NCBI GenBank assembly: GCA_021413735.1
Contig: JAIOPV010000148.1
Coordinates: 1-64,000, forward strand
Reading direction: 5' to 3'
From: Planctomycetota bacterium
Lineage (GTDB): Bacteria; Planctomycetota; Planctomycetia; Gemmatales; Gemmataceae
Length of the DNA stretch: 64,000 bases
The notes under the pieces were generated by a model, which worked only from the letters and a program-made list of their open reading frames with translations, made no database searches and had not been told where the DNA came from. The position numbers were made by a program, and so were the translations under genes. Numbering within the stretch: position 1 is the first letter of the stretch; the number at the start of each line of letters is the position of its first letter. Below are positions 861-22,892 of this stretch, piece by piece.

Positions 861-8196
<7,336 letters not shown>

Positions 8197-8464: not shown

Positions 8465-8838
8465 CGTGAAGGGTTTTGAACGCAACCCTTCTCAACCGGT
8501 GAGCCTTGCGGCTCCCCTTCAACCACGAGATTACGCGGGGTTCCACCGGCTGTCAATGCGTTCAATCGCCAGCGTTGAGGTGGAATATGTCGAGTTCGCG
8601 TCAGCCTTTGGGGACGACCGCTCACACGGGTCAGCGGTGTCCGGAAAGTGGCGTCTGGGTTGTCGTTGGAATACCAACAACGACTGCCCCGATTGCTAAA
8701 CACAACGTCATGCCCCCATATGAGGGCAAAGCGGTCAGCTGGAAACTGATCCAGTACGCTTGATTGCTGTAACTCGTCGGAAGGCAGTGGCAACACCGCT
8801 GCCTTCCCCAACTGATCCACACGACAAGCGAATGTCCG
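8465..8838. other. non-coding, hairpin-rich stretch between cas2 and csb1
   Basis: I see no convincing protein here. Several short stems are present: GAGCC/GGCTC around TTGC (about 8500-8515), GTCGTTGG/CCAAC with a bulge (about 8661-8682), and a 12-bp stem GGAAGGCAGTGG/CCGCTGCCTTCC at 8779-8807. A structured RNA is possible. A 204-residue minus-strand frame crosses it but also crosses the repeats on either side. Confidence 0.4.
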
Positions 8839-8840
8839 GC

Positions 8841-8949
8841 AAGTCTCCGCGTTCAACCGCGGCCGAATTGAAGCGAGAGTGGGGTCTGTATAGTGGCGAT
8901 GTTTCATAGTGTTTTCTCCCGGTGGTGACACCGCGGCCTATCTCAGAGC
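8841..8949 (+). ncRNA. degenerate two-repeat mini-CRISPR with one 37-nt guide (CreA/CreR-like)
   Basis: The first degenerate repeat (8841-8874) keeps TCTCC and the full GGCCGAATTGAAGC 3' end of the array repeat. Its stem has changed on both sides (CCGCG/CGCGG) and so still pairs. The second (about 8912-8949) keeps TTCTCC, a stem (CGGTG/CACCG), GGCC and a terminal AGAGC, and it overlaps the 3' end of cas2. The interval 8875-8911 is 37 nt, within the array's spacer range. Orientation is plus, opposite to the cas genes. The guide seed (GAGAGTGGGGT) matches the palindrome upstream of csb1 with one seed mismatch, at position 6. Known analogues are the CreA and CreR RNAs, partly matching guides that steer type I effectors to repress a toxin or cas promoter. 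That role here is inference. No clear promoter was found. Confidence 0.75.
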
Positions 8950-9227
8950 ACCATCACCACATCGTTCTTGTCGTGTGCGTCAGTTGGGCGACCGATTGTC
9001 TCCATGCGTTGCAATCCTGCCTCGCTCAATGGCAAGAACAACACTTGATCTTCGTCTAGATTGATAATGTCGTACAATCGCTTTTGTAAACGTACAATGT
9101 CGGTTACGGACACACGAACCAAAAACACCGAAAGCTGTTTCCGGTAGCCAAAGTCCTCGCAGGTGCGGGCCACCTTTCGAAGTCGTTTCGGGTCCGAGAT
9201 GTCGTAGCACACCAAGTACGAATCCAT
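8943..9227 (-). CDS. cas2: Cas2, CRISPR adaptation endoribonuclease-fold protein
   Basis: This 94-residue protein has the typical Cas2 start MDSYLVCYDISDPKRLRKV, with the Asp at the end of beta-1 (CYDI), and the QLSVFLVRV beta strand. Cas2 dimers bridge two Cas1 dimers during spacer integration. It lies 250 nt downstream of cas4-cas1; that gap holds a dispersed repeat. The 3' end overlaps the second degenerate repeat of the plus-strand mini-CRISPR. Confidence 0.95.
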   Translation of the reverse strand: MDSYLVCYDISDPKRLRKVARTCEDFGYRKQLSVFLVRVSVTDIVRLQKRLYDIINLDEDQVLFLPLSEAGLQRMETIGRPTDAHDKNDVVMVL

Positions 9228-9310
9228 TGCGTCTTCCAGCCCATTGTTCTGATATTATTTCTTCTGGACGATAGTAATGATTCCAGGGCTGAAAGGTTGG
9301 CTCCGGAGGC

Positions 9311-9396
9311 GAATGTCTAAGTTCCGGGCCTGAAATCATGGTTCCGGGACTCTTTTGGATGATTCCGGACGTGGGGTGTGCATGTCGTCCGGAATC
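9311..9396. repeat. dispersed repeat, copy A (between cas4-cas1 and cas2)
   Basis: About 86 bp rich in GRTTCCGG motifs closely resembles 53637-53723. Both read GAATG...GTTCCGGG..CTGAAAT...GGTTCCGGG, then TTTTGGATGATTCCGG, then GTGGGGT.TGC.TGTCG.CCGGAA. It carries no gene. It could be a remnant transposon end with several transposase-binding repeats, or a MITE-like element. Its position interrupts the spacing between two adaptation genes. Confidence 0.75.
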
Positions 9397-9477
9397 ATGA
9401 CGAGGCAACGCCTCACGCTCGGTGGTTACTTCAGGTAATCGAGATCGCAGCGCCGCGCCGCGCACGACACCCTTTCT

Positions 9478-11187
9478 TCAACGTACCGTGAAACCCGTGT
9501 AACTCGGGATGCTCCCACGAACGTATGCCGCCAACATGCGTGCCTGCACTTCCAGCATTCGCGAATAGCTCATGCGATAACCGTAAACCGGGTGCGTGAT
9601 CTCCGTCGATTTCCGCTGTTCGTATGCCGCGAAGAACGCCTTTCGCCCCGCGTCGGTGAGTTGACACGAATCACGCCACGTCACGAAGTCGGCCTTCGTC
9701 ACGATCTCGTTGTTGATGAGCGTTAGTACCACGCTGTCAGCGATCACGGGACGGAACTCTTCACAGAGGTCGAGCGCGAGCGATGGCTTCCCGTGACGAC
9801 CCGCGTGGAAGAAGCCCTTATACGGATCGAACCCCACTGTGCAGACCGCCGAGAAGCAATCTTTCGCCAGCATCGTGTATGCGAAGGAGAGCAGCGCGTT
9901 CACTGGATCACGCGGCGGACGACGATTGCGTGTCGTGAAGTCGAAGCCTTTGCCGGTCGGCGGTTGCTTCAAGAAGCGCCCGAACTCGCCAAAGTACAGC
10001 GCTGCGCCTTGACCTTCGACGCCCAGCACCGACTCGATTGACGTGTGGCGGTCGAGTGTGCGAAGGAGATCGTACAGTCCGCGTGCGCCGTACTCCTTGC
10101 TCCCGCGTGTGTCGTCCTCGCGCAAGTTGCGCATCAGGAGAGTGCGCTGATTCGCGAGCTTCGCACGCACCACGGCTTTCGCGAGCTCCAGACACACGGC
10201 GGATTCGTTGAACTTCTTGAATTGCGATTCACGCAGTGAGACGTTCTTCGAGGGTGCCGGCACGAACGAGCCGATGAAACGCCCATGACCTGTGACGTAG
10301 GAAATCGGGATCTCGTTCTCGGCGAGCGTTTCGAGTGCTTGCGTGGACACCTGCACGTTCCCACAAACGACGACCTGCCGCACGGCGTGCATCGGCACGC
10401 GACTCGTTTCCTTGCCGTCCTTCTTGATGACGAGGTGCTCACTTCTCTTACCGACCGACGAACCAGGCTCCTGAAGGTACAGCACGGCACCGTCGTCGGA
10501 TTGCGGGATGACTTTCTTGAGTTCTGCGGGTTGCTTCGCGTCTTCGTTCGGGATGGGGTGGCCGATCTGGTAGAGCGTTTCTTCGGGGAGGCACACCGGC
10601 GCGAGGGAACAGCCAAAGCAGCGGTGACGCAACTCCGACGGCAGCGGCTCGGGTGGCGAATCGAGCACGCTGAGTTCCCGACATCGGCTGATTGCGGCGT
10701 GGGTCTTCTCACGCAGTTCAGATGTGAACTTCAGTTCGACGCGCTCCTTGCTGCCGGCGTGAAACTGGAATCCGTGCGACACGGGTTTGCCGAACGCTTC
10801 TTCCATGAGCATCGCTTGTGCGCACAGTTGAACCGCGTCGTTGTCCCAGACGGTGGGCTTGCCGTTGTCATCGTGTGGGGCCGAACCGTGCTTCGTTTCG
10901 ACGGGGTACTGCTCGCCGTTCTTCTCTTCGATGACATCGAGAATGCCAGTGATGCCGAGTGTGTCCGACGACAACGCAATCCCGCGACTGGTGGCGGTGC
11001 CGCGATCGTTGCGTGTCTTGTTCTTGAGGTCGGGATCGTCGACACGGCGATGATCGAACAACCCGCCTTCGACGTGCTGATTAACCGGCATGACGGCATC
11101 GACGTACTGGAGGTAGTACAGCCGTGGGCAGTACGTCACCTGATTCAAGGCGCGCACGGGGATCGGGTCCGTCGCAATCGCGGACAT
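9478..11187 (-). CDS. cas4-cas1: Cas4-Cas1 fusion, spacer acquisition integrase
   Basis: This 569-residue fusion is typical of type I-G. The Cas4 part (about 1-215) has the YCPRLYYLQY cysteine, a PD-(D/E)XK core (TGILDVIEEK... then VETKHG), and the cysteine cluster HRCFGCSLAPVC for an Fe-S cluster. The Cas1 part (about 225-569) has the expected metal-binding residues: Glu in LGVEGQGAALYF, His in GFFHAGRHGKPSLALDL, and the following acidic pair. Cas4 selects and trims PAM-containing prespacers and Cas1 with Cas2 integrates them. The ATG at 11187 has AAGGAG 6 nt upstream; an in-frame TTG two codons earlier is less likely. The nitrilase-like gene ends 31 nt upstream. Confidence 0.95.
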   Translation of the reverse strand: MSAIATDPIPVRALNQVTYCPRLYYLQYVDAVMPVNQHVEGGLFDHRRVDDPDLKNKTRNDRGTATSRGIALSSDTLGITGILDVIEEKNGEQYPVETKHGSAPHDDNGKPTVWDNDAVQLCAQAMLMEEAFGKPVSHGFQFHAGSKERVELKFTSELREKTHAAISRCRELSVLDSPPEPLPSELRHRCFGCSLAPVCLPEETLYQIGHPIPNEDAKQPAELKKVIPQSDDGAVLYLQEPGSSVGKRSEHLVIKKDGKETSRVPMHAVRQVVVCGNVQVSTQALETLAENEIPISYVTGHGRFIGSFVPAPSKNVSLRESQFKKFNESAVCLELAKAVVRAKLANQRTLLMRNLREDDTRGSKEYGARGLYDLLRTLDRHTSIESVLGVEGQGAALYFGEFGRFLKQPPTGKGFDFTTRNRRPPRDPVNALLSFAYTMLAKDCFSAVCTVGFDPYKGFFHAGRHGKPSLALDLCEEFRPVIADSVVLTLINNEIVTKADFVTWRDSCQLTDAGRKAFFAAYEQRKSTEITHPVYGYRMSYSRMLEVQARMLAAYVRGSIPSYTGFTVR

Positions 11188-11218
11188 GGGCAACTCCTTG
11201 GGTTAGGAACTGAAGACG

Positions 11219-11944
11219 TCAGATGGTGCGAATGCACCACGCGATCCAGAACTTGTCGTCACCGACCCATTCGCATTCGTTGAGCGGCACCGATTCGCGA
11301 ACGCCGTCGGCGCGAACGAAGTGCAAACTGCCTGCACTGTGCGGGGCAACGTGGTGCGTGTGAGCGACCACACACCTGCCGTTGTGTGCGATGTTCTCCA
11401 TTGCCTTCGTCACGCCCGTTCCCATGCTGTAGTGTCCGAGATCCACGGCTAAATTCAGGTTGAGAGTGGCGAACGATTCGCGTGCCCACCAACTGAAGAG
11501 TTCGCCGCAGATCAAGACGCCGACACGCGAACCCGCCACTGAAACGACGCGACCGAAACCGGGAACATCTTCGTAGGCTACGTCGGCAGCGTTCTTGCTC
11601 GTGCTGCTCGTTTGTCGCCACGAGCCACCAGACTCTGTACCGCAGATAAACCCGAAATACGGAAGTCGCGGTGAACGAGCGCCTTCGCCCTTGGTCGATT
11701 CCGGAAGATCAATGCCCGCTGCAATTGTGATCTTCGCTGCGTTTGCGATATCCGCGAGTTGAGCAACCGCGCCCGGTAACTCACGTTCTGTTCGCACTGT
11801 GAGATAGCCGCCCGGCAACTGCAACAAGTCCGCGTGCTTATCCGCAGCCACTTCGAGCAACTTGCGGAGAGCATCGAGTCGGGTGGCGTTGTGTTCAGGC
11901 TTGCGGAAGCCCGTTCCGGAAACGATCGTTTGAAGCAACCTCAT
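11219..11944 (-). CDS. nitrilase-superfamily fold protein with altered active site
   Basis: This 241-residue protein has the carbon-nitrogen hydrolase layout. The block ADLLQLPGGYL corresponds to the usual LPE.F strand, and GSRVGVLICGELFSWWARE corresponds to the nucleophile elbow (IC.D/E). The cysteine is kept. The catalytic Glu is replaced by Gly (LPGG), and no Lys is seen where the YRK motif is expected. It is therefore either a degenerate enzyme or a ligand-binding relative. The ATG at 11944 has GGAGAG 8 nt upstream. It sits between herA (124 nt upstream) and cas4-cas1 (31 nt downstream) on the same strand, so it may be transcribed with either. Function unknown; an NTase- or amide-related defence role would be speculation. 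Confidence 0.7.
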   Translation of the reverse strand: MRLLQTIVSGTGFRKPEHNATRLDALRKLLEVAADKHADLLQLPGGYLTVRTERELPGAVAQLADIANAAKITIAAGIDLPESTKGEGARSPRLPYFGFICGTESGGSWRQTSSTSKNAADVAYEDVPGFGRVVSVAGSRVGVLICGELFSWWARESFATLNLNLAVDLGHYSMGTGVTKAMENIAHNGRCVVAHTHHVAPHSAGSLHFVRADGVRESVPLNECEWVGDDKFWIAWCIRTI

Positions 11945-12068
11945 GGGCGATCTCTCCGAACTGTCTTGGCCCAAGTGGGCCAAACGTTACATCGCTTTCA
12001 GGAGATTGTTCCTCAGGCGATGTCGAAGTTCGACGGAACTCTGAGATTTTTGGAGGCGCCCGTTCACG

Positions 12069-13952
12069 TCAATCCACCATTCGCAGTTTCGCCTGACTCG
12101 GATCAATCGCCACAAGCAACGGTCTGGCAAAGTGCGGGAAACTCACCACCGCCTGACCCGGCGCCAGGTTCGGCAATCGATCCCACAACCCTTCATCGAC
12201 GCCGCCCACCGTGCGCTTCAACAGCGAGATCACGCCTGGATCGTTCAGTTTGTGAAGGATGAACGAGTTGCACAGTCCGAGAACCTGCTTCGGTAAGTGT
12301 GCTGGCAGTTGTGTCACGAAGCACAGCCCGAGCCAACGCTTTCGACCGCGTTTCGCAATGCGTGCCACCTGCTCGAACAACACCGGTGTGCGGCCGATGC
12401 GCTCGTCGCTCAGGAACTCGTGCGCTTCCTCAACCACGATCAACACCGGCGTCGGCAACGCTCCCTTCTGCTGCTCGAATCGTTCGTAAGCCTCGTCCTG
12501 CGTCTCCTGAATGCCACGCAAGATGTCCGCGATCACGAGATTGTTCAACTCCGAGAAGCCCGTGTCCGACAGATCGACCACCGACACACGACCAGGCTTG
12601 ATGAGGTCCGCGTAGTTCACCGGGCGTGTGCCGTCTTTTGTCTCGTCGAAGAACACCTTGAGCCGGTTCAGGCGACCGAGTCGACCCTGGAGCGCACGCC
12701 ACGAGATCGCGTTGCCGGGCGGGTTCGCTGCATTCATGCGCTTGTTGAGATGGTCGGTCGCACCGGGCAACTTCAACTCACGACACCACGGCTCGAAGGA
12801 TGGCGTTTCGTCGGCGTCATCATCAGCTGCTTTGCCGCGTTTCTTCTTGTCGCCCTTCGGCTCGGCACGCAGCGCACACGCACACACGATGTCGATGAGC
12901 AGCGGAACCGTCATGCGTGGATAACCGCGGTCGAACTCGTCGATCTCTAACGCGAGCCGTTCTTGTTCGGCATTGCCCTTCTGCGGGAAGATGTCGAGAT
13001 CGCGAAGCACTTCTCTCGCGATGTCGTAAGCCTTGAGGAACCGTTCTTGCTGCGCTTCGGTGAGTCCGAGAATCTCCATGACCGCATACGGCGAGAGCTT
13101 CGCGAACTGAAGCGAGAAGGGGCGCAAGTGCGGATGATTCGGGTTCGCCGTGCCGCGACCGATAAGGTGGTACACGCCCATCTGATTGGCCGGCACCCCA
13201 AGCGCGGAAAGTTGGAGTTTCCGCAACCCCGCGAGCATTCCCTTGTGGTCTGTCGGTTCGTGCAACGCGGTGTATTCTCCTTCGATATCAAGCACAACAA
13301 CCGCCATTCCCGCAGCACGGGCACGCGCGATCAACCCCGCAACAGTCGTCGATTTCCCGCCGCCGGTCGTGCCCAGAACAGCCGTGTGCCGGGGGAACAC
13401 CGACTTCAACTGCGATGGAACCGCAACTTCCACACCCGGGTGACCGACCGCCAAACCGAGTCGCACGTCGCCGCCACACTTCAGCACCCGCGCCGCTTCC
13501 GCATCATTCAACACCGTCACGGGGCTGTTCGGCAGCGGTCGCCAGCGCGGGGGCGTGAGCTCGCCGTTGTCCAACTCTTCGCCGAGAATCGTCACCTGAA
13601 TCCGACCGTGAAACGGCGGTAGATAGTCGGCGCGATGCGTGGCGACGGCCGTGAGGATGCCGGAATCGGCGCGAAGACCGTCGGGTTCCGCGAACGGTCC
13701 GGCGGTCACGACGCCGAGATAACTTCGCTTATCGGTGAGGCTGCGGATGCGCACGAGCGATTGCGCCGGTGCGTTCTGCAAGTAATCGCGACCAAGCAAC
13801 ACGGTCACGGTGAGATCGGAACTGCCGGGCAGGTCGAACATCGTGACGCCAACCGAGCCGTCACTTGAGGCTGGGTTTTTCGGCTCGCCAGCGAGTGCGA
13901 ACTCATTCGCGAGTTGCTGCGAGATGGTTGTGGTACCGTTGGTGTCGGGCAT
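12069..13952 (-). CDS. herA: HerA-type DNA translocase ATPase (DUF87)
   Basis: This 627-residue protein has an N-terminal HAS-barrel-like region, a Walker A at about residue 225 (LGTTGGGKST), VVVLDIEGEYT after it, and the HerA Walker B VLIVVEEAHEFL. RKRWLGLCFVTQLPAHLPKQVL follows, typical of HerA. HerA forms a hexameric ring that pumps DNA and works with NurA. The adjacent upstream gene encodes a NurA-like nuclease, which supports the pair. A lysine-rich loop (GDKKKRGKAADDDADE) is inserted in the middle. The ATG at 13952 has AAGGAA upstream; longer starts would run into the 50-nt gap and the nuclease gene. Confidence 0.9.
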   Translation of the reverse strand: MPDTNGTTTISQQLANEFALAGEPKNPASSDGSVGVTMFDLPGSSDLTVTVLLGRDYLQNAPAQSLVRIRSLTDKRSYLGVVTAGPFAEPDGLRADSGILTAVATHRADYLPPFHGRIQVTILGEELDNGELTPPRWRPLPNSPVTVLNDAEAARVLKCGGDVRLGLAVGHPGVEVAVPSQLKSVFPRHTAVLGTTGGGKSTTVAGLIARARAAGMAVVVLDIEGEYTALHEPTDHKGMLAGLRKLQLSALGVPANQMGVYHLIGRGTANPNHPHLRPFSLQFAKLSPYAVMEILGLTEAQQERFLKAYDIAREVLRDLDIFPQKGNAEQERLALEIDEFDRGYPRMTVPLLIDIVCACALRAEPKGDKKKRGKAADDDADETPSFEPWCRELKLPGATDHLNKRMNAANPPGNAISWRALQGRLGRLNRLKVFFDETKDGTRPVNYADLIKPGRVSVVDLSDTGFSELNNLVIADILRGIQETQDEAYERFEQQKGALPTPVLIVVEEAHEFLSDERIGRTPVLFEQVARIAKRGRKRWLGLCFVTQLPAHLPKQVLGLCNSFILHKLNDPGVISLLKRTVGGVDEGLWDRLPNLAPGQAVVSFPHFARPLLVAIDPSQAKLRMVD

Positions 13953-14001
13953 GGGAGTTCCTTGTGGTCCTGCGGTCCTGTTGGGACCGCCGCGACATTC
14001 G

Positions 14002-15300
<1,299 letters not shown>

Positions 15301-16032
15301 TCAGATTTTCGCAAACGCAGGCCAGATCTTTTGTGAGAAATCTTGCGGAAGCAGAATTGCGGCGTATTTCGCGGCCGAAAGGGGAGGGAGGCCGAACTTG
15401 GAGATGAGCTTGGCATTGAGCGAATCCCGGTCGGAAATGGGATCAGCAGCAACGGCAGCGAACGGGGCCAGCAACTCGAACGCGAGCCGGTCGGCGGCTT
15501 CTTCTGCTTCACGGGTCGCTGTTGTTTTCGGGCGACCCCGCTCATCGCGACTCAGCAGATGCGAGTGACAATCGACTGTCACTTCCCTCAGAATGCCAGC
15601 GAGTTGTTCGTCAGACGTAGGCGGTCGTTGTCCGTCGAAGATTTCCAGAACGCGCGGACCGAACCGCACGACCGCACGGCGTCGGGGTTGGTCGTAATCG
15701 CGAAGGAAGTGTGCCAACTCGTGCGCGATTGTGACTCGCTTCTCGGCTTCGTCGTCGTTCGCGTTCACCAGGATGTGGGCGGTTCCGAAGTGTGCCGCGA
15801 AACACCCGCTGAGTGGTCGGTCAGCGACTTCGGCGGGGAATGGGACACCTAACCTCGCGAGGAATGCGGCGGCTCGCGCGAGAGTGAGGTTGGGGAGTTC
15901 GTGGATTTGGATGTGTGTGAGCCAACGTAGCGAATCGCGCAGATCGCGTGGAAACGCCGGCGGTGCCTCCTCGACGGTCGCCCAGAACCGCGCAGCGAGT
16001 TCGATCACCCACACTGGCGGTCGCGAGTTCAC
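15301..16032 (-). CDS. ImmA/IrrE-family metallopeptidase
   Basis: This 243-residue protein contains the zinc-peptidase motif HELAH in RVTIAHELAHFLRDY at about 103-107, preceded by the substrate-strand block CFAAHFGTAHILVNAND, as in ImmA/IrrE proteins. A downstream EAEEAADRLAFELLAP helix matches the third zinc-ligand helix of the family. ImmA peptidases cut HTH repressors after DNA damage or phage signals. The GTG start at 16032 overlaps the preceding small gene by GTGA. Its natural substrate could be that HTH-like partner (inference). Confidence 0.88.
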   Translation of the reverse strand: MNSRPPVWVIELAARFWATVEEAPPAFPRDLRDSLRWLTHIQIHELPNLTLARAAAFLARLGVPFPAEVADRPLSGCFAAHFGTAHILVNANDDEAEKRVTIAHELAHFLRDYDQPRRRAVVRFGPRVLEIFDGQRPPTSDEQLAGILREVTVDCHSHLLSRDERGRPKTTATREAEEAADRLAFELLAPFAAVAADPISDRDSLNAKLISKFGLPPLSAAKYAAILLPQDFSQKIWPAFAKI

Positions 16033-16379
16033 GAGTCTTCCCGGTCACGTGCCGCTAGCACCACACCTGCCGAATCGGTCGGCGTGTTCTCGTGTCGGAG
16101 CGTTGCAAGTCCGTACTTCGACGCTTCAGCCAGTGCCCGCGAGTTCAACCCGAACTTCTGGGCAACGCACGTCACATCTTCGCGGAACCCTGCTGGGTCG
16201 GTCCGTGGTGCGCGACACAGGCGAATCGTCGCCAGCAACTCGACTTCGCAGCCAAGACGGACCGCGAGCGCTGCATCGTCGAGTTCATACACCCGTCTGT
16301 ATTCCGCGAGTCGGAACCCGAGGAAGAACGAATCTGTCGATGTTCTGCGAGCGATCCGTTCGAGTGGCGTGGCATTCAT
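16029..16379 (-). CDS. small HTH-like regulatory protein
   Basis: This 116-residue protein has a segment LDDAALAVRLGCEVELLATIRLCRAPR that looks like an XRE-type helix-turn-helix (A-L-A-x-R-L-G-C, then recognition helix), followed by DVTCVAQKFGLNSRALAEASK. It overlaps the sigma factor stop by ATGA, with GGAGG directly upstream, and overlaps the ImmA-like gene by GTGA. The three are thus a tightly coupled regulatory trio. It may be a repressor or anti-sigma-like partner cut by the peptidase; nothing in the sequence settles this. Confidence 0.65.
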   Translation of the reverse strand: MNATPLERIARRTSTDSFFLGFRLAEYRRVYELDDAALAVRLGCEVELLATIRLCRAPRTDPAGFREDVTCVAQKFGLNSRALAEASKYGLATLRHENTPTDSAGVVLAARDREDS

Positions 16380-16972
16380 TTGGCACCTCCAACAGCTCGC
16401 GTGAGCCGTTTCTTGATTCGGTCTTTCCATTGCTTCGCGAGCGTGGCGAGTTCGTTGGGCGAGACATCTGCCAACCCTGGGATTGTCGCAAAGGCTGCGG
16501 AGCTGCGATTGCCGCATCGCATCAGTTCGAGGACCGCGGATTCGGTGGGGTCAAACGCAGCGACCTCAGCAACGAGACGGGGATCGTCCCAACTTGGCGA
16601 GTCGTTCGGGGAATGGTTCCCGTGAGCGACCGGTTCCGCGACAAATTCGAGGGAGATGATTTTGGGATGTTGGTTGTCCTTTGCGAAGAGGCTCGCCATT
16701 TTTCTCCGCGCAACCATCCGCAAGAACGCATCGAGTTCGAGCCTGTTTGGGTCGTAACGGCTGGGCCGCTTCACAACCGCGAAGATGGCATCAGCGGCAG
16801 CTGTTTCGCACTGCTCGGGGTCAGCGAATCGGGATCGCCGTTCCAGATAGTGTGTGACCGGGTTGAGAAACGCACTGAAGATTTCTCCGGGTGCGGTTGC
16901 AACTCCGGAAACCAAGTCGGTCGCCATCCGACACGTTTCGGCTTCAGTTGGCCAAGTGGAAGATTGGGGCAT
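16376..16972 (-). CDS. ECF-like RNA polymerase sigma factor
   Basis: This 198-residue protein has a region-2-like stretch: DPEQCETAAADAIFAVVKRPSRYDPNR followed by LDAFLRMVARRKMASLF. This matches the helices of planctomycete ECF sigma factors (DAVQDAFL... then F..WL...ARN). The C-terminal half (LADVSPNELATLAKQWKDRIKKRLTRA) could be region 4. I chose the ATG at 16972 because GGAGGG lies 5-6 nt upstream. A longer frame to 17119 has no such site and translates to low-complexity residues. It heads the minus-strand cassette and could control it. A candidate promoter lies at about 17100-17132. Confidence 0.72.
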   Translation of the reverse strand: MPQSSTWPTEAETCRMATDLVSGVATAPGEIFSAFLNPVTHYLERRSRFADPEQCETAAADAIFAVVKRPSRYDPNRLELDAFLRMVARRKMASLFAKDNQHPKIISLEFVAEPVAHGNHSPNDSPSWDDPRLVAEVAAFDPTESAVLELMRCGNRSSAAFATIPGLADVSPNELATLAKQWKDRIKKRLTRAVGGAK

Positions 16973-17162
16973 GTTTTGCCCTCCATTTCTTCCACAGAAC
17001 GTATCGGGGACGACAAGGCGGCGCCGATGTCGGTTGCAACAAAACGAGTGCTTCTCGCCACCGTCGGGCACTCCACGCTTATTTCTGGTGTCGAACCGAT
17101 TCACATATGTTAGATTCATCTTCTTGAGTCAAACTATTTCGTACTAAGCATTGCTCGTCCCC
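16973..17162. promoter_or_regulatory. divergent promoter region between two nuclease-ATPase operons
   Basis: This 190-bp gap separates the sigma factor (minus) from the winged-helix-like gene (plus). Around 17095-17150 it is much richer in A and T than its surroundings. On the minus strand TTGACT lies near 17127-17132, with CATATG 17 bp downstream. On the plus strand TTGAGT overlaps the same spot. Both are weak candidates and the exact start sites are unknown. Confidence 0.4.
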
Positions 17163-18443
17163 ATGCCGAAGGTCAACGCGATTGCTGTTCTGGCCGACAA
17201 CCTCGTGACGGATTTGGCGACCAGTCGGGCGAGCAGTACCGACTACCCTATCTGCTTGGATCGCCTTTCCACCCGACTATTACCGCGTCCTGATCAGGAG
17301 GCCTTGCTGAAGGCGGTCGCGAATAAAAAGTTCACGTCGCGGGCTATCGTGGCTGTGAAGGGCCGCGCGGACGCCCCGGTCGCGCTGCGAGAACACCTCT
17401 CCGAGCTTGCCGCCAGCCCGCTGACATTGGAAGTGGCTCTCCGGGTAAAGGGGGAACAGGGTGCCCCGCCCTGGTTGCCAAAGCAACTCGCGGGGGCGGT
17501 TCACAAGGATCTCAAGGCAGGTTTTCTGAAGGCGATCAACGAGCGGGTCGAGCGAGGCGATCTTCCCGCTTTCGCCGTCGCGGTGAGCAAAGGGAAGACT
17601 GTTGTTCTCTACCACCGGGACCGTCCGCCGCCACCGCCTCCACCGTCGCCGTCGGTTCAAGACGCGGAACGGCTCGTCGATCTCATCCGTCGGCGGTGCC
17701 GACCGGGAGAGCCAGCACCTCTCATCACCGTGGCGGCCCTGGAAACAGAGGCCGGGTTGACGCCTGCGGCCTTCAAGAAGGCGGCGAAAGAGCCGACGTT
17801 CGCCGAGGCGGTGACGCAGGTGAAAGTGAAGCCGAACGACGTCCTTGTGACCCCGAACGGGACCGGGGACGAGTTCGGACGGTTCGTTACCGGGCCGCTG
17901 CTGACTCGGTTGCTCGCCGGCTGTGCCCGGACGAGTGCCCATGCGTTTCCGACAAAGGAACTTGTGGGGCAACTGGCGGACAAGGGGCGGCAGCAGCAGG
18001 TCGCGAGTCAGTTGAACCGTCACGATCTCGCAAGCGAATTGCCCACCGGTGTTGGGTGCGTGCTCCTCAGCGACGGCAAGGCCGGGGGTCAGAATGTGTT
18101 CTTCTCGCTCGAACACCTCCGGGCCGTGCGATCGGCAGCCTCACCGTCGGCAGAATCGACCCCACGAGTGACGGACGACTTCGCGACAGCGTTCGACGCC
18201 GCGTTCGCCCGTATCGACCGCGAGCGCGGGTCCAACAACTTCGTCAGCCTGGTGAACCTGCGGTCAGCCCTTCCGAGCGTGTCGCGGGAGACATTCGACG
18301 CCGGATTGCAACAACTTCGCCGCGAACGGCGGTACGTGCTCACCTCGGACGAGCGGTACGACGGACTGACCCCGGAGCAGCAGGCTGCTGCGATACGGGA
18401 AGAGGGCGAGTTCCTGCTCCACGTGTCCCGAGGCCGGCCATGA
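17163..18443 (+). CDS. unknown protein with C-terminal winged-helix-like domain, first gene of a three-gene operon
   Basis: The product has 426 residues. The N-terminal 150 residues are helical and unrecognised. A proline run (PPPPPPPSP, about 160) links to a middle part, and the last 90 residues (RGSNNFVSLVNLRSALPSVSRETFDAGLQQLRRERRYVLTSDERYDGLT) read like a winged-helix DNA-binding domain. The ATG at 17163 lacks a clear Shine-Dalgarno; an in-frame TTG lies 12 nt upstream. It overlaps the ATPase gene by ATGA. Its likely role is DNA or partner recognition for the two ATPases downstream (inference). I do not recognise a named family. Confidence 0.7.
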   Translation: MPKVNAIAVLADNLVTDLATSRASSTDYPICLDRLSTRLLPRPDQEALLKAVANKKFTSRAIVAVKGRADAPVALREHLSELAASPLTLEVALRVKGEQGAPPWLPKQLAGAVHKDLKAGFLKAINERVERGDLPAFAVAVSKGKTVVLYHRDRPPPPPPPSPSVQDAERLVDLIRRRCRPGEPAPLITVAALETEAGLTPAAFKKAAKEPTFAEAVTQVKVKPNDVLVTPNGTGDEFGRFVTGPLLTRLLAGCARTSAHAFPTKELVGQLADKGRQQQVASQLNRHDLASELPTGVGCVLLSDGKAGGQNVFFSLEHLRAVRSAASPSAESTPRVTDDFATAFDAAFARIDRERGSNNFVSLVNLRSALPSVSRETFDAGLQQLRRERRYVLTSDERYDGLTPEQQAAAIREEGEFLLHVSRGRP

Positions 18444-20626
18444 CTTCGCCTACCGCCCCGACCGCTACCTCAACCGGCAAGAAGTCCCGGCCGGTTGATG
18501 CGTTCCTGACCGCCCTCGCCCGGAGCAACCCGTTCAGTCACCACCGGGTGACCGCCACCGGGGCGCAGCCGATCGACGTGCCAAGCATTCACGACGCCGA
18601 GTTCCGCACCCTGATCTCGCTTGCTGAACGGGTATGCGATCAGGACGAGGCAGTTGGGGTGGTCGTCTGGGGCGAGTCCGGGTCGGGCAAGAGCAACCTG
18701 TTGCGCCGGCTCGCGGAGTGGGCCGCCGACGGGCGGGCCGTGTCGGTCAATTTCCTCGAACTCCAGGCAGCTCCTGACCGGCTTCACCGGGCCGTACTCA
18801 CCGCCGTCGTCAGCGCACTCACGAATGGTTTCGCACCTCCGTGGCACCGGACCCCGCTTTACCTGCTGCTGGAGGGGCTGATCCGCCCGGCGCTCCCGGT
18901 CGGAAAGCAAAAACTGTCGCCAGCCGACTTGGGCCGGGTGTTCCGGGATCAGATGACAGGTCCGGTCGCGGCGGCCGGAGCCACGCCGGTGGTTCGTTCG
19001 ACGGTCGAACTGTTACTCCGCTTCCTGACGGCGGCGTTGGCGGAGAAATCCCGCCGAGCGGATGGGAGTCCTGCCGACGCGATCATGCGGCGACTCAGTG
19101 GAGACGCTCTCGACGAGGAGGAGGCGAAGGCTGTCGGCGCGCGCGGGGCGGACGCTGTGAACCCACTCGATGCAGCCGACAGTACCCGTGTGCTCGCCCT
19201 CCTCGCGCAGGTGGCTCGCCTCAACCGCCGGCCGCTGATCCTTTGCTTCGACCAAATCAACAGTCTCCCACGGCAACAGATTGCCGACGTGTCCCGACTG
19301 CTCCACGAACTAAATGACCGCCTGCGGAATACCCTGCTGGTTCTCTCGGAGGTCCGCATCGAGTTGGTGAACCTGACGGAGACAGGTGTGATCTCTCAGG
19401 CGACGTGGGACCGGCTGGCGGCGAACAAGGTCGAAATGCCGCGTCTCACTGTCCCCGAAGGTCGCCGCATCCTCGAAGCTCGGCTGGAGCAATTCCTCAC
19501 GCATTTCGAGGGCGAAGAAGAGGTTAAACGGCATTACACCGAGGATCCGCTGTTCCCGCTTGGCGAGGCGTGGTTCGCGAACCGTTTCAGTGCTTCCGTC
19601 GATGTCCGTCCGCGACGGATGATTGACGCTGCTCGGGAGCGGTGGGATGAACTCCAGAAGTCGCTCGACGCGGCACCCGACAAGGGGAAGTGGCTCGAAC
19701 ATTGGCCGAACTTCAGCCGCGTCGATCTGCCGGTCAAGACGAGCGAGCAACTGATCGACGAGCAGGTCGAGAAGGCCATCGGCGGTCGGGTCGCTCGACA
19801 CGCGGCCGCTCCGAACGGTCTGCCGCCGAACGCCGACAACCTGTGCGGGCTGGTCGAGTCGCTGCTCGCCGCTGGCGGGTTTGGGCTGGCCGTCGGTCGG
19901 CCGAAACGCGGCTCGCCTTACGATCTGCTCGTCCGGTCCCCGAAATCCGGTGGCGGGGAGACGACCGCCGGCCTGGTCTTCCTGGCGACCGGCAGTTCAA
20001 ACAGCATCACCAGCGCTCTTGGCCGGTTGGCCGGAGACGCGAAGCGACCAGACCGGGTCATCCTCGTCACAGACCAACGGTTGCCACTCGCATTTGGCCG
20101 TGCCGCGAAGGCTCAGGGGCGCAACCACTACGCCGCCCTGGAAGCGACGGCCGGGTTTGAGCACGCCGAACTGCCGTTCGCCGAGTACGCTGCGCTGGAA
20201 GTCCTCGACACGGTCGGTCGGCAAGAGTCGGACTTGGAGATCAGCCCACCCGGCGGCACATCCCGGCCTCTCAAGCGGGACGAGGTAATCGCGTCGTATC
20301 GCCGTACAGGGCGGTTCACGAAACATCCCTTACTCGGCCGGTTCGTTGGGGTCACTCCGCCGACTGCGACGACGCTCACCGACGTCGAGGTCCGCACGTT
20401 CGTGGGCGGTCAAGTGGCGCTCACTGTCGGAACAGACACCCACGAACTGGCCCGGCAGTTCCTCAACGGACTCCCCGCCGACCGCCGCGCCGGGCTGGAC
20501 ACGGCCGCGTGCCGATCCCGGATTGAAGCAGTCGCAAAGACGATGGCCGAGGCTGGAGACATTACGATGACCCGCTTGGGCGACGGCTACTTCCTCCTCC
20601 CGAAGCGCCGGCCCGCTGCCGGCTGA
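18440..20626 (+). CDS. AAA/STAND-like P-loop ATPase of the three-gene operon
   Basis: The product has 728 residues. It has a Walker A GESGSGKSNL at about residue 75 and a Walker B LILCFDQIN at about residue 270, followed by an ORC/Cdc6-like sensor region (LRNTLLVLSEVRIELVN). The region after residue 470 (CGLVESLLAAGGFGLAVGRPKRGSPYDLLVRSP) is reminiscent of a restriction-like fold but lacks a clear motif. The last 200 residues end in a winged-helix-like TRLGDGYFLLPKR. It is coupled to the first gene by ATGA and precedes the nuclease-HerA gene by 22 nt. Such ATPases act as sensors or loaders in defence systems; that role here is inferred. A frame opening at 17696 would include a shadow of the preceding gene. 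Confidence 0.8.
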   Translation: MTSPTAPTATSTGKKSRPVDAFLTALARSNPFSHHRVTATGAQPIDVPSIHDAEFRTLISLAERVCDQDEAVGVVVWGESGSGKSNLLRRLAEWAADGRAVSVNFLELQAAPDRLHRAVLTAVVSALTNGFAPPWHRTPLYLLLEGLIRPALPVGKQKLSPADLGRVFRDQMTGPVAAAGATPVVRSTVELLLRFLTAALAEKSRRADGSPADAIMRRLSGDALDEEEAKAVGARGADAVNPLDAADSTRVLALLAQVARLNRRPLILCFDQINSLPRQQIADVSRLLHELNDRLRNTLLVLSEVRIELVNLTETGVISQATWDRLAANKVEMPRLTVPEGRRILEARLEQFLTHFEGEEEVKRHYTEDPLFPLGEAWFANRFSASVDVRPRRMIDAARERWDELQKSLDAAPDKGKWLEHWPNFSRVDLPVKTSEQLIDEQVEKAIGGRVARHAAAPNGLPPNADNLCGLVESLLAAGGFGLAVGRPKRGSPYDLLVRSPKSGGGETTAGLVFLATGSSNSITSALGRLAGDAKRPDRVILVTDQRLPLAFGRAAKAQGRNHYAALEATAGFEHAELPFAEYAALEVLDTVGRQESDLEISPPGGTSRPLKRDEVIASYRRTGRFTKHPLLGRFVGVTPPTATTLTDVEVRTFVGGQVALTVGTDTHELARQFLNGLPADRRAGLDTAACRSRIEAVAKTMAEAGDITMTRLGDGYFLLPKRRPAAG

Positions 20627-20648
20627 CTCCGGCCCGACTGGTGCCCCA

Positions 20649-22892
20649 ATGCCGCCTGTCCGCTTCAGCGTGTCGCAGGTCTGCGCGGCCGCCGCCTGCG
20701 CCCGCATCTTGTACTTCGACGCAGTCCACGCCCGGACCAATCTCCTGCCTCGACCGACCGTCACTCGAATCTGGCGGCCGGGCGACGACGTCACCGCTGC
20801 CGGGTCGCTGTTTCACGCCGCTGTGGACGCCTTCCACCGCGAACACCGCCGATTGTTCGCCACCCCACAGTTGACAGCTCTGCTCACCCCGATGCCGAGC
20901 CGGGATGCGCTCGCCGCAACACTCCTCCAAACCTTCTACTGGGAGTGTGTTGATCGCGACGCACTGGCCACCAAGGACGCGGAACAGCAGCGGGCGTTCA
21001 TGGGCGTGCTCCGCAACTACACCGGCGAGTTGGCCGATGTGCTGACCTATGCTCTCGGCCGTGGCCGTGAATCCTCCATCGTGTTGGATGAACTGTTCGC
21101 CGACACCCGTCGACGGGTAGATGTGACGTTCCCGGTCGGTCCCGCCGGGGAACCAGTCCACGTCACGGGGGTACTCGACTACGTGTTCCACGACTGGCGA
21201 ACGGGCCGCGATCGCATCCTCGACTACAAACTCCTTCCCCCAGCCGCTGCCGACAAGTTCCAGGTCGGTATCTACGCCCTGATGCACCACGTCCAGCACC
21301 GGACAGAGCCGTCGGCCGGAGTGCTCTATCTCCACCCGCGACGGGAACTCCACGAACTCTCCTGGGAGGAGGTTCGGGGTGGCCGAGCGACCGTGTTCAA
21401 TCTGCTCGCGTCGATGCGGGAGTGGGTCGGGTACGACGAAGTCGCGAAGACTGGGTTGAAGCCGCCAGGCTCCCCTGATGTCTGCTCGCGGTGCAAGTGG
21501 CGGCACGAGTGCGTGCGGCGGCTGGGACCCGTGGATGAGGGAGAGCGACTGACGCACTGGACGGACGCAGCCGCCGACCCGATTAGGCCCGAGGTTCGCT
21601 CGCCCAGCGACGAACCGGACCCACCGCCCTCACCGGAGCGGACACAAGGCGGCCTGTGGCTCGGGCACACCGACGCTGGAACACCTGCCGAAGTTCCGCT
21701 GACGGCGCTGCCCACGCACGTTGCCGTGGTCGGGGCAGCCGGGAGCGGGAAGACGTGGCTGGCGAAGGCGGTCGCCGAGGAAGCGGTGTTGGCCGGGGTC
21801 GCGGTGCTGGCGATAGACCCACAGGGTGATCTCGTCCAGTTCCTCCGCCCGGCCGACCCGACGAAACTGTCCCCCGCCGAGCGCGAGCGTGCGGCCCGGT
21901 TCACACAAACCGCTGCGGTGCGAGTGTTGACGCCCGGCACTGACCACGGAGAGCGAATCAGCCTGAATCCGCTGAAGTTGCCAACTGCCGGCGGGGCGGA
22001 TGTAGACGATCTGCTGGCGACCACCGCCGGCCACCTCGTCACGCTGGCGAAGGCGACCGGGGAAGTTGAGTCGCAGAAGACGTTCGTCTTCCAGTTGCTG
22101 CGGGCGCTGACCCGTGGCCCGGCCCGTGACCTGAGTTTGGGAGACATCGCGACCGCTCTCCGCGACCCAACCGCAGCCGGGCTGGACGACCCTGATCGGT
22201 TCGTGCGGAAGGCTGAGCGGGAGCGGCTGGCCCGGCAGTTGAACAACCTGGAGCATGGTCCGGCGGCCCGATTGTTCGTCGGCGGTCGTCAACTCGACCT
22301 GGGCTGGCTGGCGACCCCGCCGACACTTGGTCACGTGCCGCTCAACGTGGTCTACCTGAACGCCCTGGCGGACGACGCCGAGAAGCAGGGGTTCGTAGCG
22401 GCGCTGGCGGTGGAGGTGTATCGTTGGATGGTCGCGTCTGGGGGTTCGGCCGGGCGCCCGCGGCTGCTGTTCTACCTCGACGAAGCGCGTGACTATCTGC
22501 CGGCTGGAACGTCTCAGCCGCCGGCGAAGAAGCCGCTGTTGCGGTTGTTCGCCCAGGGGCGGAAATATGGGGTTGCGTGCTTGGTGTGTACTCAAAGCCC
22601 GCGGTCAGTGGACTACAACGTGTTTGGCAACTGCAGCACGAAACTGATCGGCCGGTTAGAGAGTGCCCAGGATGTGGACCGAGTGCGGGAGTGGTTCGCG
22701 CCACAGGGTCCACCGCCAGCGTGGGTGGCCGGACGGGTGGGAGCGGAGCGGGGGACGTTCGTCGGACGCTGGCCGGGCCAGCCGGGCGGAATCGATGGCG
22801 TGAGTTTCCGGAGCCGCAACCTGCTGACGGCACACGAGGGTGCGTGGTCACCCGAGCGGGTCGCCGAGGAAGTCGCCGCACGGAAAGTGTGA
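20649..22892 (+). CDS. Cas4-like PD-(D/E)XK nuclease fused to a HerA/VirB4-type ATPase
   Basis: The product has 747 residues. The N-terminal 300 residues look like a Cas4/RecB nuclease: FSVSQVCAAAACARILYFD (Cas4-like CPR..YL cysteine), GVLDYVFHDW... then ILDYKL (PD-(D/E)XK core), the QVGIYAL helix, and a CSRCKWRHEC cluster that can complete a four-cysteine Fe-S site. After a proline-rich linker the ATPase begins: GAAGSGKTWLAKA (Walker A, about 365), FYLDEARDYLP (Walker B), and LFAQGRKYGVACLVCTQSPRSVDY...GNCSTKLIGRL, typical of DUF87 HerA-like ATPases. This is HerA-NurA logic in one chain. It ends the operon. Confidence 0.88.
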   Translation: MPPVRFSVSQVCAAAACARILYFDAVHARTNLLPRPTVTRIWRPGDDVTAAGSLFHAAVDAFHREHRRLFATPQLTALLTPMPSRDALAATLLQTFYWECVDRDALATKDAEQQRAFMGVLRNYTGELADVLTYALGRGRESSIVLDELFADTRRRVDVTFPVGPAGEPVHVTGVLDYVFHDWRTGRDRILDYKLLPPAAADKFQVGIYALMHHVQHRTEPSAGVLYLHPRRELHELSWEEVRGGRATVFNLLASMREWVGYDEVAKTGLKPPGSPDVCSRCKWRHECVRRLGPVDEGERLTHWTDAAADPIRPEVRSPSDEPDPPPSPERTQGGLWLGHTDAGTPAEVPLTALPTHVAVVGAAGSGKTWLAKAVAEEAVLAGVAVLAIDPQGDLVQFLRPADPTKLSPAERERAARFTQTAAVRVLTPGTDHGERISLNPLKLPTAGGADVDDLLATTAGHLVTLAKATGEVESQKTFVFQLLRALTRGPARDLSLGDIATALRDPTAAGLDDPDRFVRKAERERLARQLNNLEHGPAARLFVGGRQLDLGWLATPPTLGHVPLNVVYLNALADDAEKQGFVAALAVEVYRWMVASGGSAGRPRLLFYLDEARDYLPAGTSQPPAKKPLLRLFAQGRKYGVACLVCTQSPRSVDYNVFGNCSTKLIGRLESAQDVDRVREWFAPQGPPPAWVAGRVGAERGTFVGRWPGQPGGIDGVSFRSRNLLTAHEGAWSPERVAEEVAARKV

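What the first reader, a model, noticed from the sequence alone, without database searches (positions are those of the whole stretch)
17163..22892. Three-gene operon: winged-helix-like protein, AAA ATPase, and Cas4-like nuclease fused to HerA ATPase
Tight coupling (4-nt overlap and 22-nt gap) and a divergent promoter shared with the HerA-NurA cassette suggest a second, self-contained defence module. The fused Cas4-like nuclease with both metal-site and Fe-S cysteines and a HerA-type motor in one protein is unusual. Two independent translocase-nuclease systems back to back, next to CRISPR, argue for a dense defence island.
Basis: partly seen in the sequence, partly recalled or inferred. Interest (0 to 1): 0.8.

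Follow-up and report, generated by a model that had tools for sequence, protein, structure and literature searches.

The report
Three-gene DNA-loader, motor and nuclease module
A tightly packed set of three genes, found together in scattered bacteria of three phyla, appears to build a machine that recognises DNA, loads a ring motor on it and cuts it, most likely to destroy invading DNA; in related sets the ring motor has been swapped for other kinds.

Summary
In detail: A (426 aa), B (728 aa) and C (747 aa) at 17163-22892, with a 4-nt overlap and a 22-nt gap; C is an intact Fe-S PD-(D/E)XK nuclease fused to a HerA motor. Of 15 loci with a window-type C, 13 hold A-B-C in order; in the other two the contig ends inside the module. 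Hosts are Planctomycetota, Myxococcota and a Chromatiales MAG; distribution is patchy (6 of 59 genomes, own included). Models show A as tandem winged helices and B as an ORC/Cdc6-type ATPase with an alpha/beta domain lacking a catalytic motif and a winged-helix-like end. This is the layout of 'HerA/FtsK capture' systems predicted in 2024 (PMC10853773), so a variant of a predicted kind. Not named in that paper's main text: a Cas4/AddB-type nuclease on the motor, and RuvB. B as bait found sister modules with the same nuclease type on another HerA, on FtsK, or (one genome) on RuvB. Likely mechanism (inferred): A and B recognise DNA and load the ring; the motor pumps and the nuclease cuts. Certain defence neighbours occur at 2 of 12 loci, so 'dense defence island' is only partly supported. 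No activity has been shown.

The parts
17163..18443 (+). Gene A, 426 aa: tandem winged-helix protein (about five units: roughly 6-75, 80-159, 160-234, 237-315, 335-426; the first and fourth by order of helices and strands only); most variable subunit, proposed recognition/specificity subunit
   Evidence: ORF; model mean pLDDT 86.7, pTM 0.42; Foldseek best hit TFIIIC TauB (E 3.8e-5, TM 0.19), human RPC62 at rank 13; VIA: MepR Z 8.4, rmsd 3.2 over 160-234; KAT6A WH Z 7.8, rmsd 2.9 over 81-159; ORC1 WH Z 7.5, rmsd 3.2 over 335-426; variable N-terminal and constant C-terminal part
18440..20626 (+). Gene B, 728 aa: ORC/Cdc6-type AAA+ ATPase (about 24-428; Walker A K84, Walker B D271-Q272), then an alpha/beta domain of restriction-endonuclease-like order without ExK (465-578), then a winged-helix-like C-terminus (648-721); proposed DNA-dependent ring loader
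   Evidence: AAA_16 E 2.2e-11; model mean pLDDT 80.7, pTM 0.52; VIA: Drosophila Cdc6 7jgr_G Z 15.3, rmsd 3.6, 251 aligned; archaeal Cdc6 1fnn Z 14.3, rmsd 3.8, 238 aligned; RdrA Z 14.7; TnsC Z 13.4; no ExK in 11 of 11
20649..21560 (+). Gene C, N-terminal part (about residues 1-304): Cas4/AddB-type Fe-S PD-(D/E)XK nuclease (H56, D177, D192-Y193-K194, Q205, Y209; Cys 17, 279, 282, 288)
   Evidence: PF12705 E 5.9e-12; residues conserved in 11 of 11, D192 in 10; H, D, (D/E)-x-K and Q also kept in sister modules with other motors
21624..22892 (+). Gene C, C-terminal part (about residues 326-747): HerA-type DNA-translocase ATPase (K368, D611-E612, Q649, R669)
   Evidence: PF01935 E 2.9e-8 and PF05872 E 5.3e-8; PADLOC HerA models down to 8.8e-15; phmmer to solved HerA chains, best E 3.5e-8; residues invariant in 11 of 11
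16973..17162 (.). Probable divergent intergenic region between gene A and the sigma-like gene of the HerA cassette (43 bp if that gene starts at 17119)
   Evidence: start-codon comparison with the C218 copy; no promoter found

Best explanation
The three genes encode one DNA-destroying machine of the loader-motor-nuclease kind, most likely an accessory defence against foreign DNA. Protein A, a string of winged helices with a variable N-terminal part, recognises the target DNA. Protein B, an ORC/Cdc6-type AAA+ ATPase, works with A on duplex DNA and loads or licenses the ring motor, as ORC/Cdc6 loads MCM. Protein C assembles as a HerA hexamer carrying up to six Fe-S PD-(D/E)XK nucleases, pumps duplex DNA and cuts it. 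Shown by sequence or model: the domains, intact active sites, co-conservation in one gene order, motor exchange, patchy spread. Inferred: assembly, loading, translocation, cutting, and the defence role. How self is spared is unknown; no methylase belongs to the module.
For: A-B-C order in 13 of 15 window-type loci, contig ends in the other 2, including one found by B alone (L100). Nuclease, Fe-S and Walker residues conserved in 11 of 11. B is ORC/Cdc6-type (Z 15.3 and 14.3). A is tandem winged helix. With B as bait, 7 of 11 planctomycete genomes (own included) have a nuclease-motor gene directly downstream and a 242-426-aa gene upstream; the motor is HerA (window; another HerA in G081), FtsK (G195, G275, G354, G373) or RuvB (G374). 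All are translocases thought to encircle duplex DNA (recalled knowledge), which suits a ring loader. Patchy: C in 6 of 59 genomes and 4 of 19 of the genus, own included. Between two Gemmata species A is 84% identical, B 97%, C 96%; A's differences are 13, 24, 15, 9, 4 and 0 per 70 residues from N to C terminus. The layout equals a class predicted to be anti-invader (PMC10853773).
Against: No experiment; the published class is itself a prediction. Certain defence neighbours at only 2 of 12 loci. No self/non-self marker in the module. A's variation is not extreme against a control: the gene upstream of the two Gemmata modules has dN/dS 0.16 and 92% identity, A 0.20 and 84%, and over the more distant loci A is only slightly less conserved than B (24-32% against 26-34%). 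The identification of B's middle domain rests on strand order alone; a profile search found nothing. Complex formation was not modelled. In 2 of 11 genomes a B-like gene stands without a recognised nuclease-motor gene.
Confidence: 0.6

Rival explanations
1. A DNA-repair machine: HerA plus an AddB/Cas4-type Fe-S nuclease resects broken ends, like HerA-NurA or AddAB, with B as a damage-specific loader.
For: The nuclease has the Cas4/AddB set of motifs and cysteines; HerA-NurA is tied to end resection in archaea (PMC9960219 and PMC12977600, abstract openings seen).
Against: Present in only 6 of 59 genomes and full length in 1 of 392 phylum genomes (own genome; 2 candidates scored per genome); motor exchange is unusual for a housekeeping repair enzyme; A's variable front part fits recognition better than repair.
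Confidence: 0.17
2. A maintenance, replication or transposition module of a mobile element: the ORC/Cdc6- or TnsC-like ATPase and HerA serve the element's own DNA.
For: B resembles TnsC (Z 13.4) as well as Cdc6; some matches of A are RepE replication initiators; PMC10853773 calls these neighbourhoods mobile; L079 and L080 share the 5' flank, and their alignment ends 25 and 9 bp past the end of C.
Against: I saw no integrase, transposase, relaxase or primase among the flanking proteins whose first 160 residues I read or in the family matches, which cover part of the flanks; no relative in the viral contigs or phages; plasmids only partial HerA matches, 3 records.
Confidence: 0.13
3. The triad and the divergent HerA cassette form one composite system with the type I-G CRISPR-Cas genes.
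For: Adjacent and divergent in the window; the second copy of the Cas4/1-HerA cassette in this genome also sits beside a module with an AAA-HerA fusion, on a contig that holds a CRISPR-like array.
Against: Neither the cassette nor Cas4/1 is found in the stretches held of the 11 genome contigs triad loci, and no array in those of the 14 other triad loci; the module beside the second copy differs and lies on the cassette's strand.
Confidence: 0.07

Closest known systems
ORC/CDC6-associated HerA/FtsK 'capture' systems (predicted; PMC10853773, section 22 read in full, other passages)
   Same: ORC/CDC6 AAA+ ATPase with a domain inserted before a C-terminal wHTH, a HerA/FtsK motor, an active REase-type nuclease, and in a subset an extra rapidly evolving multi-wHTH gene; motors taken from different sources
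   Different: Here the nuclease is Cas4/AddB-like with an Fe-S cysteine set and is fused to the motor; one sister uses RuvB. The main text has 0 occurrences of Cas4, RecB, PDDEXK, Fe-S and RuvB; Figure 7 and the supplements could not be seen, so overlap with one of its two REase families is possible
DndFGH / SspFGH-type systems
   Same: Multi-wHTH subunit, P-loop protein and a nuclease-HerA/FtsK polypeptide; an FtsK sister (L069) matches the SspH C-terminus (E 6.9e-56)
   Different: DndH/SspH models are about 1560-1770 aa; DndF is a kinase-like P-loop protein in the paper; B here is ORC/Cdc6-type
DUF4297-HerA (PMC11291478, abstract and outline read)
   Same: Nuclease-HerA assembly against phage, active on dsDNA; a working precedent for the mechanism
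   Different: Two separate proteins with another nuclease; the abstract names no ORC-like ATPase or multi-winged-helix protein
HerA-NurA
   Same: HerA ring coupled to a nuclease
   Different: Here the nuclease is fused and of the Cas4/AddB type; no NurA match
BREX-related capture (BRC) systems (PMC12839542, passages read)
   Same: HerA/FtsK, ORC/Cdc6 ATPase and wHTH proteins together
   Different: No PglZ, DUF6079, GNAT or TGT match in A, B or C

Membership tests
ORC/CDC6 + HerA/FtsK capture system | ORC/CDC6-family AAA+ ATPase | tested here: met
   Cdc6/ORC top the VIA list, Z 15.3 (rmsd 3.6, 251 aligned) and 14.3; Foldseek top hits Orc1/ORC
ORC/CDC6 + HerA/FtsK capture system | Inactive REase domain inserted between AAA+ core and C-terminal wHTH | tested here: inconclusive
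   A domain of order helix-strand-strand-helix-strand-helix-strand lies at 465-578 and lacks ExK in 11 of 11, followed by a wHTH-like end; profile search against solved structures gave no REase (10 of 11 rows); the domain was not folded alone
ORC/CDC6 + HerA/FtsK capture system | HerA/FtsK motor | tested here: met
ORC/CDC6 + HerA/FtsK capture system | Active REase of one of two stated families | tested here: inconclusive
   An intact PD-(D/E)XK site is present; whether it is one of the paper's two families cannot be seen from the main text
ORC/CDC6 + HerA/FtsK capture system | Extra rapidly evolving gene with 2-4 wHTH domains (a subset of operons) | tested here: met
   Tandem winged helices, about five by my count; A is the least conserved of the three
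ORC/CDC6 + HerA/FtsK capture system | Multi-wHTH related to DndG/SspB/FokI | tested here: inconclusive
   None of them among the 50 listed rows of Foldseek or VIA, which does not exclude it
ORC/CDC6 + HerA/FtsK capture system | Motor belongs to the paper's HerA/FtsK clades 2, 4 or 5 | not tested
   no reference tree at hand
Cas4 | Reaches the curated Cas4 model cut-off | tested here: not met
   TIGR00372 25.6 bits against 65
Cas4 | RecB-type site plus one N-terminal and three C-terminal cysteines | tested here: met
   arrangement as described in PMC3466216 (passages); also shared by AddB
Cas4 | Lies in CRISPR loci | tested here: not met
   True for the window only: Cas4/1 not found in the 11 genome-contig loci, and no CRISPR-like array in the stretches held (3.0-22.4 kb) of the 14 other triad loci (the window is the positive control)
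HerA-NurA | NurA partner | tested here: not met
   no NurA match for A, B or C
DndFGH | DndF, DndG and large DndH | tested here: not met
   no Dnd model matched A, B or C at E up to 1
MADS | Methylase and other mad genes beside a mad8-like ATPase | tested here: not met
   mad8 matches C (2.7e-17), and mad3 matches B at 1.5e-3, but both also match ABC-type ATPases elsewhere; no methylase in the triad

The most novel reading that the evidence does not exclude
An interchangeable-motor restriction platform: a constant core (recognition subunit A, ORC/Cdc6-type loader B, PD-(D/E)XK nuclease) is tethered to whichever duplex-DNA ring motor is at hand: HerA, FtsK or RuvB. The N-terminal part of A is exchanged by recombination like the target-recognition part of a type I specificity subunit, so DNA degradation is aimed by protein recognition and ring loading, with no methylation mark.
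Probability: 0.3. Interest if true: 0.78.

Novelty: new variant of a known kind. Interest (0 to 1): 0.6.

Why it matters
If it works as inferred, bacteria use the logic of replication origins (ORC/Cdc6 loading a hexameric ring) to load a destroying machine on foreign DNA. The swap of HerA, FtsK and RuvB behind the same kind of nuclease suggests that ring loading and pumping, not a particular motor, is the essential step, and it gives clean comparative material to test that. The module is about 5.7 kb, without a methylase of its own, and self-contained, so it is easy to clone. It also names Planctomycetota, Myxococcota and a Chromatiales MAG as places where a predicted class can be tested.

Tried and rejected
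Defence-island reading: flanking genes of 11 loci other than the window were scanned with PADLOC: 55 of the 73 flank genes called in the first 10 loci (8 loci, those of L008 and L009 dropped, as were short or overlapping calls; one L015 gene was given with a shortened start) and 10 chosen genes from L068, L079 and L100. Apparent hits that fell away: MzaA in L100 is a sigma-70 factor and mad3 in L068 an ABC transporter by Pfam; mad3 in L010 and L013 belongs to proteins I read as ABC ATPases. PDC-S01 in L012 (E 5.3e-111) is about 8.6 kb from C and was not counted as a certain defence gene.

RuvB form: a phylum search with the PD-(D/E)XK-RuvB protein gave 2 of 392 genomes; only G374 has the nuclease-RuvB fusion, the other (G244) matches over RuvB alone. 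G374 also keeps a 344-aa RuvB elsewhere. The claim rests on one genome.

The phylum search with C gave 99 of 392 genomes at E<=1e-20, but full length only in the window's own genome; in the loci looked at (L020-L048) the others are HerA domains near the N-terminus of other proteins, or (L045, L046) near the C-terminus of longer ones, without the nuclease. One further hit (G081) matched over the nuclease and is the sister module L065. In some searches only the best 2-5 candidates per genome were scored, so the counts are lower bounds.

Empty-site test: the upstream gene of the Gemmata modules has several paralogues, so no clean empty site was read. Viral, phage and plasmid searches found no full-length relative.

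Trees of A, B and C (13 rows each) share well-supported groups (four Gemmataceae; L009+L016; L006+L079) and show no starred conflict, but deeper forks are weak.

Literature: 10 searches ran. 'HerA' with 'Cas4-like nuclease' gave 0 papers (104); 'FtsK capture' gave 1 (70); RuvB + fused + nuclease + antiphage + ORC gave 0 (98). 'HerA', 'Cas4-like' and 'defence' gave 1 (32) and 'Cas4', 'HerA', 'fused' gave 10 (69), of which I read passages of one only. Iyer et al. 2004, recalled as describing HerA-nuclease fusions, is not held, so such fusions may be in print there.

The control lowers the odds of the novel reading from 0.33 to 0.30; other odds stand.
Full report
What is there. A and B overlap by 4 nt, B and C are 22 nt apart. 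C carries a PD-(D/E)XK nuclease domain (PF12705, E 5.9e-12) and a HerA motor (PF01935, E 2.9e-8). B carries an AAA_16 domain. A matches nothing in four libraries.

Is the triad real? A pattern-based scan of genomes of 84,980 species with C, which reaches close relatives only, gave 11 loci, 45-83% identical. B lies directly upstream in 10 of the 11, and A before it; L014 begins inside C. Two further genomes reached through C (L068, L079) and one reached through B alone (L100) have the same order. With the window there are 15 loci: 13 with A, B and C, one (L008) where the contig ends inside A, one (L014, apparently the same contig as L087) where it ends inside C. In L009 and L011 A starts at the contig edge. 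By mechanical ORF starts, 16 of the 20 junctions lie between -4 and +19 nt; the other four are overlaps of 8, 19, 56 and 982 nt, the larger two probably from ORFs called too far upstream. The hosts are Gemmata, Zavarzinella, planctomycete MAGs, two Polyangiaceae MAGs, another genome of their phylum, and a Chromatiales MAG.

Active sites. Over 11 aligned C proteins the nuclease residues H56, D177, Y193-K194, Q205 and Y209, the four cysteines 17, 279, 282 and 288, the Walker A K368 and Walker B D611-E612 are invariant; residue 192 is D in ten and E in one. L100, added later, has C in place of Y209. The cysteine pattern is that of Cas4 and AddB as described in PMC3466216 (passages read). By model score it is not Cas4 proper (25.6 bits, cut-off 65).

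What A and B are. The AlphaFold2 model of A (pLDDT 86.7, pTM 0.42) is a row of about five winged helices; Foldseek and VIA match single or multiple winged-helix proteins, with low whole-model TM-scores and Z 8.4 at best, so this shows fold only. The model of B (pLDDT 80.7) has an AAA+ part whose best solved matches are Cdc6 and ORC subunits (7jgr_G Z 15.3, rmsd 3.6, 251 residues; 1fnn Z 14.3), with RdrA (Z 14.7) and TnsC (Z 13.4) also in the list. It is followed by an alpha/beta domain (465-578) whose order of helices and strands suits a restriction-endonuclease fold but which has no ExK in any of 11 sequences, and by a winged-helix-like end (648-721). A profile search of that middle domain found no solved relative, so calling it an inactive REase is an inference.

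Spread. C is in 6 of 59 genomes and 4 of 19 in the genus, own genome included; one of these (G396) is a half gene at a contig end. In an even sample of the phylum only 1 of 392, the own genome, has the full-length protein. B-like genes are in 11 of 392 and in 2 of 188 genomes of the phylum of L012, the query's own genome included each time. This is the patchy spread of an accessory module. Apart from three plasmid records that match only the HerA half, nothing turned up in plasmids, phages or viral contigs.

Motor exchange. I looked beside the 11 B-like genes of the phylum sample. Seven have a nuclease-motor gene downstream and a 242-426-aa gene upstream in A's place (in G354 0.4 kb away): G000 (the window, HerA); G081 (PD-(D/E)XK E 2.8e-16 with another HerA: Pfam HerA_C 18.9 bits, below its cut-off of 22, PADLOC HerA E 8.6e-7); G195, G275, G354 and G373 (PD-(D/E)XK with FtsK/SpoIIIE, three of them with an FtsK-alpha match); G374 (PD-(D/E)XK E 1.2e-6 with RuvB, RuvB_C E 5.6e-12). 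Two (G102, G282) are on contigs of about 3.5 kb, too short to tell. In two (G044, G050) I recognised no such gene. A second B in G444 is followed by an FtsK protein with the same nuclease motifs by eye, though no PDDEXK_1 match. In the 14 proteins aligned, the residues H, D, (D/E)-x-K and Q are kept in every form and Y in all but L100; the four cysteines are found only in the HerA forms. The A-place proteins of the sisters are unproven winged helices: of the six scanned, only L071's shows weak HTH matches, below cut-offs.

A second solution in the same genome. Contig C218 carries a CRISPR-like array, another Cas4/1 (90% identical) and another copy of the HerA cassette (92% over 631 of 675 residues of its HerA), followed not by this triad but by a 1076-aa protein that joins a B-like AAA+ (E 8.1e-13) to HerA, a 341-aa protein and a 446-aa protein with a DUF559-type nuclease end (E 3.8e-6). 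There the nuclease is a separate gene. It supports the idea of parts that are combined in different ways.

A varies most. Between two Gemmata species with the module at the same 5' neighbours, A is 84% identical, B 97%, C 96%. Along A the differences per 70 residues are 13, 24, 15, 9, 4, 0; dS is 0.30, 1.60, 0.71, 0.36, 0.35, 0.06. High dS as well as dN in the front part suggests replacement by recombination, not only fast drift. Against this: the windows are short, the curve is uneven, it is one pair of genomes, and the control gene upstream is itself at 92% identity, dS 0.33 and dN/dS 0.16 (A: 0.44 and 0.20). Over the distant loci A is only slightly less conserved than B.

Neighbourhood. The window lies by a type I-G CRISPR-Cas locus: 12 repeat copies, Cas3g, Csb2, Csb1/Cas7g and Cas4g/1g. 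Of the other 11 loci with flanks scanned, only L015 has certain defence genes (type I methylase and specificity subunits, PDC-S05); L012 has a PADLOC candidate 8.6 kb away. No CRISPR-like array lies in the stretches held of the 14 other triad loci. Hence 'defence island' is right for this window but not a property of the module.

Mechanism. Every motor found behind the nuclease is thought to act as a ring on duplex DNA; ORC/Cdc6 is the textbook ring loader (both recalled). A is a DNA-binding string with a variable part. The simplest reading is that A and B mark a DNA and load the ring, and the ring pumps it past the fused nucleases. DUF4297-HerA shows that a nuclease-HerA assembly can cut dsDNA and stop phage (PMC11291478, abstract). 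Steps shown: domains, active sites, co-inheritance, motor exchange. Steps inferred: complex, loading, pumping, cutting, target. The main rivals are an end-resection repair machine and a mobile-element maintenance module.

Comparison with what is known. PMC10853773 (section 22 read in full, other passages) predicts 'HerA/FtsK capture' systems with an ORC/CDC6 ATPase, an inactive REase inserted before a C-terminal wHTH, an active REase, a HerA/FtsK and in a subset a gene of 2-4 wHTH domains. The module fits this layout. New against its main text are the Cas4/AddB-like Fe-S nuclease fused to the motor, the RuvB form and the uneven variation of A. PMC12839542 (passages) describes a HerA-centred BREX relative with other parts. 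Figure 7 and the supplements could not be seen, so I file it as a new variant of a predicted kind.

Noticed in passing
L086 (G244:C405) 1792-3225, with 713-1795 and 3235-4614: A DndE-RuvB fusion (DndE model E 3.3e-6 over residues 16-117, RuvB E 2e-31 over 262-471, both below curated cut-offs) between DndC (E 1.5e-132) and DndD (E 3.3e-76): RuvB captured in a phosphorothioation operon.
   Followed up: partly
L017 (G000:C218:8000-27000), 8614-14203: A different three-gene module in the same genome: 446-aa protein with DUF559-type nuclease end, 341-aa protein, 1076-aa AAA+-HerA fusion, beside a second Cas4/1 and HerA cassette on a contig with a CRISPR-like array.
   Followed up: partly
window 12069-17119: A five-gene cassette (sigma-like, 162-aa, M78/IrrE-like peptidase, 414-aa protein of no known family, HerA) that occurs twice in this genome; the 414-aa protein has no NurA or other match.
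   Followed up: partly
L020-L044: A group of planctomycete proteins of about 600-870 aa with a HerA domain close to that of C near their N-terminus and a C-terminal part I did not identify, E 4e-56 to 7e-70.
   Followed up: no
G166:C180 15772-16995 (+) and 47684-48907 (-): Two such HerA genes with the same score in opposite orientation about 32 kb apart, possibly a long inverted repeat or an assembly artefact.
   Followed up: no
L079 and L080, gene A: Uneven synonymous divergence along gene A between two Gemmata species (dS 1.6 at residues 71-140, 0.06 at 351-420), as if its front part had been replaced by recombination.
   Followed up: partly
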